NCBI GenBank assembly: GCA_016290775.1
Contig: JAEEVF010000001.1
Span: 186,001-250,000 of the forward strand
DNA: 64,000 nucleotides
Origin: Acetatifactor sp.
Lineage (GTDB): Bacteria > Bacillota > Clostridia > Lachnospirales > Lachnospiraceae
Reading direction: 5' to 3'
Each line of letters starts with the position of its first letter. The stretch's first letter is position 1. The notes beneath the pieces were generated by a model. The model saw only the letters and a list, made by a program, of their open reading frames with translations. It did no database searches and had not been told where the DNA came from. Made by a program: the position numbers and the translations under genes. Of the stretch, positions 60,721-61,015 are shown piece by piece.

Positions 60721-60833
60721 TCCACGTGATTTGATTTGGAAACGTCGTTTTCCCATTCCATTTCCATGAAAGAAAACGACGTCACCATAGAACGTAAAAT
60801 GGTTCCATTCGCCTGGAGGAAGAGGGGATCATT

Positions 60834-61000
60834 AGCGCCTGGACCGTAATTGGTTGACGAGGGTTGGCAGTTATCGAAAGACTCGGCGGATTCTGCCACG
60901 GCCACGGCGGGTCGACACGAAGAGAGCAAAAAGCGGAATGAAAACCGTAACAGAGGCTCTTCGAACGCCTATCAGAAAGACAGCGCGGAGAAGCGCTGAA
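60834..61000 (+). ncRNA. glmS-type self-cleaving ribozyme/riboswitch in leader of acyltransferase-nagB-glmM operon
   Basis: Ordered core motifs: A|GCGCCTGGAC (60834-), GTTGACGAGGGTTGGCAG, TTATCGAAA, CTCGGCGGATTCTGCC (GGCAG/CTGCC pair), CCGTAA, distal CAGCGC-GGAGAA-GCGCTG hairpin. Confidence 0.85.
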
Positions 61001-61015
61001 AGGTAAGGAGATTTT

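What the first reader, a model, noticed from the sequence alone, without database searches (positions are those of the whole stretch)
60742..61015. glmS-type ribozyme in the leader of an acyltransferase-nagB-glmM operon, not glmS
Seen directly: attAGCGCCTGGACC..TTGGTTGACGAGGGTTGGCAGTTATCGAAAGACTCGGCGGATTCTGCCACGG...ACCGTAA.. The blocks match the conserved core of the GlcN6P-dependent glmS ribozyme (A|GCGCC cleavage site, GUUGACGAGG, UUAUCGA, UCGGCGGAU, CCGUAA) in the right order, with a compensated GGCAG/CUGCC stem. The canonical partner gene is glmS. Here the element ends about 16 nt before a GlmU-C-like acyltransferase followed by nagB and glmM, while the window's intact glmS (54271) has no room for a ribozyme. 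Self-cleavage on GlcN6P would shut down the enzymes that use or interconvert GlcN6P, which is unexpected if nagB is catabolic.
Basis: partly seen in the sequence, partly recalled or inferred. Interest (0 to 1): 0.9.

Follow-up and report, generated by a model that had tools for sequence, protein, structure and literature searches.

The report
glmS ribozyme controlling a nagB operon
A self-cutting RNA switch that normally shuts off the amino-sugar-making gene glmS sits, in this rumen-type bacterium and many relatives, in front of an operon containing nagB, an enzyme usually thought to break that sugar down, which suggests that these bacteria run nagB backwards to build cell-wall precursor from ammonia.

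Summary
Window 60823-60973 (+) is a full-length RF00234 match (60.5 bits, gathering score 37, E 1.8e-11), the only one in the complete genome, with all core blocks and the A60834|G60835 site. Acyltransferase, nagB and glmM follow; the genome's glmS has no ribozyme. It is not a one-off: 65 untruncated operon leaders from rumen/gut Lachnospiraceae and other Clostridia carry the ribozyme before nagB-acylT-glmM or acylT-nagB-glmM (64) or glmS-acylT-glmM (1), with strong helix covariation. In 394 sampled Clostridia genomes 76 of 80 core motifs precede glmS, so the nagB context is a minority branch. Best reading: NagB makes GlcN6P from fructose-6-phosphate and ammonia, and the ribozyme gives ordinary GlcN6P feedback on a UDP-GlcNAc operon. 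Cleavage and the aminating direction are inferred, not shown.

The parts
60823..60973 (+). glmS-class self-cleaving ribozyme (RF00234), full length
   Evidence: cmscan 60.5 bits, gathering 37, E 1.8e-11; the only hit in the genome
60834..60835 (+). predicted GlcN6P-dependent cleavage site A|G
   Evidence: alignment to the RF00234 consensus; AGCGCC invariant in 39 aligned ribozymes
60842..60855 (+). P1 hairpin (60842-60845 with 60852-60855)
   Evidence: 99.4% of cells paired, 2 of 4 pairs with changes on both sides
60865..60898 (+). P2 stem (60865-60870 with 60893-60898) enclosing the conserved ATCGA and TCGGCGGAT core
   Evidence: 100% of cells paired, 6 of 6 pairs with compensatory changes across 39 sequences
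60919..60962 (+). P3 stem (60919-60924 with 60957-60962) and P4 (60933-60936 with 60945-60948)
   Evidence: 90% and 98% of cells paired, 6 of 6 and 2 of 4 pairs with compensatory changes
61016..61672 (+). GlmU-C-like left-handed beta-helix acyltransferase (acylT), probable GlcN-1-P N-acetyltransferase
   Evidence: best NCBIfam match TIGR03992 Arch_glmU, C-terminal half, E 7.9e-41, below the full-length cut-off; PDB 5z09/2ggo E 3e-22; no canonical GlmU in the genome
61716..62507 (+). nagB, glucosamine-6-phosphate deaminase/isomerase, hexamer-type with altered allosteric loop
   Evidence: TIGR00502 377.7 bits, cut-off 236.9; SRTGVRDLT where solved homologues have SRTRIKTLT; the only nagB in the genome
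62511..63857 (+). glmM, phosphoglucosamine mutase; last gene before a terminator-like hairpin with T-run just after its stop
   Evidence: TIGR01455 548.8 bits, cut-off 447.55; sequence after glmM
54271..56112 (+). glmS, intact, without a ribozyme (contrast, not part of the element)
   Evidence: TIGR01135 759 bits; the single RF00234 hit in the genome lies elsewhere

Best explanation
The element is a genuine glmS-class ribozyme giving negative feedback on a UDP-GlcNAc biosynthesis operon in which NagB acts as a GlcN6P-forming enzyme (fructose-6-phosphate + NH4+ -> GlcN6P). GlmM then makes GlcN1P and the acyltransferase makes GlcNAc1P. When GlcN6P accumulates it binds the leader RNA, acts as cofactor for cleavage at A60834|G60835, and the downstream acylT-nagB-glmM mRNA is destabilised. 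Shown here: the ribozyme by sequence, structure and covariation; the operon context and its conservation; the genome-wide absence of nagA and canonical GlmU. Inferred: cleavage activity, mRNA decay, and the aminating direction of NagB.
For: Ribozyme: 60.5 bits; 20 of 20 sampled relatives over cut-off; 96.6% of cells paired, 102 cells changed on both sides against 26 in shuffles, 16 of 20 pairs compensated. Operon logic. Among untruncated operons, 65 of 69 leaders before nagB- or glmS-containing operons carry the ribozyme, against 1 of 6 before acylT-glmM alone (Fisher p about 4e-5, not corrected for phylogeny). The close relative L008/L089 (97% acylT identity) lacks both nagB and the ribozyme but keeps a promoter-like leader. 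L022 has the ribozyme on glmS-acylT-glmM, with glmS in nagB's place. nagB not catabolic: no nagA in this 100%-complete genome nor in any of the seven closest relatives, one nagB only. In the same genus, ordinary NagBs are about 37-43% identical and lie beside nagA in 19 of 24 loci fetched. In the genus sample the six genomes with the operon-type NagB are exactly the six with a ribozyme hit. The allosteric loop SRTRIKT is replaced by SRTG[VL]R[DN] in every clade NagB whose loop is fully covered, while the catalytic motifs NMDEY and DGHIAFNEP are intact. No GlmU over cut-off in 20 of 21 genomes checked, so acylT-glmM is the likely UDP-GlcNAc route.
Against: GlmS is also encoded here and in 38 of the 39 genomes first tested, so NagB need not be the GlcN6P source. 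NagB-family enzymes usually favour deamination: Akkermansia NagB could not aminate at physiological conditions (PMC5902328), and the reported Km of the E. coli enzyme for NH4+ is 31 mM (PMC11593775). One genome (G514, L237) has ribozyme-acylT-glmM with its nagB elsewhere. L019, L023, L075 and L087 have the nagB operon without a ribozyme, and two of these four genomes have nagA. The window ribozyme has T instead of the nearly invariant G after GGCGGAT, although L062 and L065 share it.
Confidence: 0.72

Rival explanations
1. The ribozyme is active but regulates the onward UDP-GlcNAc enzymes (acylT, GlmM); nagB is a passenger or a GlcN6P/Fru6P balancing enzyme supplied with them.
For: G514 (L237) has ribozyme-acylT-glmM with nagB elsewhere; glmS is present in most of these genomes.
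Against: Five of six acylT-glmM operons without nagB or glmS lack the ribozyme, while 65 of 69 with one have it; in most loci nagB is the first gene after the ribozyme; feedback on consumers of GlcN6P alone would worsen accumulation.
Confidence: 0.15
2. NagB is catabolic and the ribozyme down-regulates it at high GlcN6P, sparing GlcN6P for cell-wall synthesis, with GlmS as the only source.
For: Deamination is the direction NagB enzymes normally favour (PMC5902328, PMC11593775).
Against: This is positive feedback (more GlcN6P, less drain). There is no nagA in this genome, nagB lies in one operon with two anabolic enzymes, and it differs from the nagA-linked NagB of the genus.
Confidence: 0.09
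3. The ribozyme is a degenerate relic left when nagB replaced glmS in the operon and no longer cleaves.
For: Lower bit score (60.5) than a canonical glmS ribozyme of the same order (99 bits, L007); one nearly invariant G replaced.
Against: All other near-invariant core positions are kept and helices are maintained by compensatory changes across 39 sequences; loss of the element where nagB is lost (L008).
Confidence: 0.04

Closest known systems
glmS ribozyme (RF00234) of Bacillus and other Firmicutes, upstream of glmS
   Same: Cleavage-site block, GACGAGG / ATCGA / TCGGCGGAT core, P1, P2, P3, P4, place in a 5' leader; 76 of 80 core motifs in a sample of 394 Clostridia genomes precede glmS
   Different: Downstream genes are acylT, nagB and glmM; the glmS of the same genome has no ribozyme
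NagB, glucosamine-6-phosphate deaminase, hexameric E. coli/Pasteurella type (PDB 1dea/7lqm)
   Same: Family TIGR00502 and catalytic motifs
   Different: GlcNAc6P allosteric loop residues replaced (SRTG[VL]R[DN] for SRTRIKT); no nagA in the genome; in an operon with glmM
Archaeal-type sugar-1-phosphate nucleotidylyltransferase/acetyltransferase (ST0452, PDB 2ggo/5z09)
   Same: C-terminal left-handed beta-helix acetyltransferase half with the PHxxYVGDS motif
   Different: The nucleotidylyltransferase half is missing; a stand-alone 218-residue protein

Membership tests
glmS ribozyme RF00234 | Covariance-model score over the curated gathering score | tested here: met
   60.5 against 37 bits, full-length, E 1.8e-11
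glmS ribozyme RF00234 | Conserved core and A|G cleavage block in order | tested here: met
   AGCGCC, GACGAGG, ATCGA, TCGGCGGAT all present; only the G after GGCGGAT is T
glmS ribozyme RF00234 | P1, P2, P3, P4 helices supported by covariation | tested here: met
   16 of 20 pairs with changes on both sides; 0 of 500 shuffles as high
glmS ribozyme RF00234 | GlcN6P-dependent self-cleavage | not testable with these tools
   Needs in vitro transcription
glmS ribozyme RF00234 | Location upstream of glmS (usual partner gene; not a structural criterion of the RNA family) | tested here: not met
   Next gene is acylT, then nagB and glmM
Catabolic NagB/NagA pathway | nagA in the genome or beside nagB | tested here: not met
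   No TIGR00221 match in G000 or its seven closest relatives; ordinary genus NagBs sit beside nagA in 19 of 24 loci
Allosteric hexameric NagB | GlcNAc6P-site residues (Arg158, Lys160, Thr161 of E. coli; numbering from own knowledge) | tested here: not met
   Aligned Gly, Arg, Asp; same replacement pattern in all clade members with the loop covered
GlcN6P-forming (aminating) NagB | Net amination of Fru6P in vivo | not testable with these tools
   Needs enzyme kinetics or glmS complementation

The most novel reading that the evidence does not exclude
In a branch of rumen and gut Clostridia the glmS ribozyme has been reassigned from glmS to a specialised, non-allosteric, ammonia-using NagB that serves as a main GlcN6P synthase for cell-wall synthesis. 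It would be the first natural case of this ribozyme controlling a GlcN6P-forming enzyme that is not a glutamine amidotransferase.
Probability: 0.5. Interest if true: 0.75.

Novelty: new variant of a known kind. Interest (0 to 1): 0.62.

Why it matters
The glmS ribozyme is a textbook case of one RNA with one target gene (from memory, a 2011 survey of 463 examples found all but two on glmS; I could not open that paper). A conserved family on nagB operons widens its regulatory range. It also gives a metabolic annotation: nagB genes here should not be read as GlcNAc catabolism, but probably as ammonia-fed amino-sugar synthesis, which would suit the ammonia-rich rumen. The prediction is directly testable with two simple assays.

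Tried and rejected
Chance or partial match: rejected by the full-length Rfam hit and covariation. A second ribozyme on glmS in the same genomes: none in the own genome; among the first 30 glmS loci of relatives no core motif precedes glmS, the only extra regex hit (L128) lying inside the coding sequence. The glmS loci fetched were not scanned. NagB as the only GlcN6P source: not supported, glmS is present in 38 of 39 genomes and missing from 9 of the 46 genomes, about what MAG incompleteness would give. The genus-wide RF00234 search is not usable as a full count, because its stricter filters missed even the own genome. The unresolved motif L161/L239 has glmM before it and no recognisable gene for about 900 nt after it. 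Literature on this gene context: none found in the open library, and McCown et al. 2011 is not held.

Full report
Observation. The RF00234 model matches window 60823-60973 on the + strand from first to last model position with 60.5 bits (gathering score 37, E 1.8e-11). It is the only hit in the complete 3.19 Mb genome. The match ends 42 nt before the acyltransferase start, so the stated distance of 16 nt and the start at 60742 need correcting. The bases 60742-60782 form a separate leader hairpin.

Surroundings. Downstream are a 218-residue left-handed beta-helix acyltransferase resembling the C-terminal half of archaeal-type GlmU, nagB (TIGR00502, 377.7 bits), glmM (TIGR01455, 548.8 bits), and then a terminator-like hairpin. 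glmS lies 6.5 kb upstream, behind rplT, with a 105-nt gap and no ribozyme.

Related loci. A scan of 85,488 species genomes with the acyltransferase brought 80 loci, mostly rumen and gut Lachnospiraceae and other Clostridia MAGs. After setting aside loci cut off at a contig end, the ribozyme core stands before nagB-acylT-glmM in 44 cases, acylT-nagB-glmM in 17, acylT-nagB at a contig end or without glmM detected in 3, and glmS-acylT-glmM in 1 (this count includes one locus from the class sample). Twenty of these were put to Rfam and all twenty passed the gathering score. Four nagB operons have no ribozyme (L019, L023 and the two Butyrivibrio loci L075 and L087). Of acylT-glmM operons without nagB or glmS, one has the ribozyme (G514, L237) and five distinct ones do not (L008, L027, L037, L073, L095; L089 repeats L008). 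The association gives Fisher p about 4e-5, not corrected for shared ancestry. The sharpest single comparison is L008: its acyltransferase is 97% identical to the window's, nagB is gone, and the leader keeps a promoter-like sequence but no ribozyme.

Is it under selection as a structure? In 39 aligned ribozymes, 96.6% of cells of the four helices form standard pairs, 16 of 20 pairs show changes on both sides and 102 cells are compensatory (shuffles: mean 26). Sliding the partner by one to three columns destroys this. The core positions are invariant or nearly so. The window copy departs at the G after GGCGGAT (T instead), a change also seen in L062 and L065.

How common is the context? In a sample of 394 Clostridia genomes the core pattern occurs in 80 genomes. 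76 motifs precede glmS, three precede the nagB/acylT type (the own genome, G413, G514) and one is unresolved. So the usual partner is glmS and the nagB context is a minority lineage.

Why nagB? If NagB were catabolic, cutting its mRNA at high GlcN6P would be perverse. The genome evidence says it is probably not catabolic. The complete genome has no nagA, nor do its seven closest relatives; 25 of the 32 genomes tested have none over the cut-off. There is one nagB only. In a genus sample of 101, the six genomes with this long NagB are the six with a ribozyme hit. The other nagB-bearing genomes carry a shorter NagB of 37-43% identity, in 19 of 24 fetched loci beside nagA. The long NagB aligns with hexameric, GlcNAc6P-activated enzymes, but the allosteric loop SRTRIKTLT reads SRTG[VL]R[DN]LT in every member whose loop is covered. 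That Arg158, Lys160 and Thr161 of E. coli form this site is from own knowledge. Canonical GlmU is missing in the own genome and 19 of the 20 others checked, which leaves acylT as the probable GlcN1P acetyltransferase. Acetyl-CoA-dependent acetylation downstream could pull NagB towards amination, and rumen ammonia is high (own knowledge).

Limits. glmS is present in this genome and most relatives, so NagB supplements or replaces GlmS only under some conditions. NagB of Akkermansia cannot aminate at physiological conditions (PMC5902328), and the E. coli enzyme has a high Km for ammonium (31.4 mM, PMC11593775). Cleavage, RNA decay and direction of catalysis are inferred. No paper describing the nagB context was found in the open library, but the standard survey of glmS ribozymes could not be opened, so priority is not settled.

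Verdict. A real, conserved glmS-class ribozyme in a non-canonical, probably biosynthetic nagB operon: known ribozyme class, new regulatory context, clear tests.

Noticed in passing
L044:2924, L054:2838, L057:3060, L064:3054, L067:3003, L071:3055, L072:3045, L074:3049, L077:2524, L084:2856, L085:249: A conserved insertion with TACTCGGAAGGTAT (possible hairpin with a GGAA loop) sits inside the ribozyme between P2 and P3 in eleven relatives; perhaps a peripheral tertiary-contact hairpin.
   Followed up: partly
window 54206-54262: Between rplT and glmS a promoter-like sequence is followed by a stable hairpin (GGAGTCC/GGACTCC) and a T-run just before the glmS ribosome site; the stem is kept with a compensatory change in L135/L137. 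Possible attenuator on glmS.
   Followed up: partly
window 60742-60782: Long hairpin ACGTCGTTTTC/GAAAACGACGT upstream of the ribozyme, -27.3 kcal/mol for the surrounding 96 nt (z -1.9).
   Followed up: partly
L015, L016, L017: glmS lies directly upstream of ribozyme-acylT-nagB-glmM, so both GlcN6P enzymes are neighbours but the ribozyme stands between them, before acylT-nagB only.
   Followed up: partly
window 56395-60108: iorA-iorB-paaK-like cluster (indolepyruvate ferredoxin oxidoreductase and phenylacetate-CoA ligase) between glmS and the ribozyme operon.
   Followed up: no
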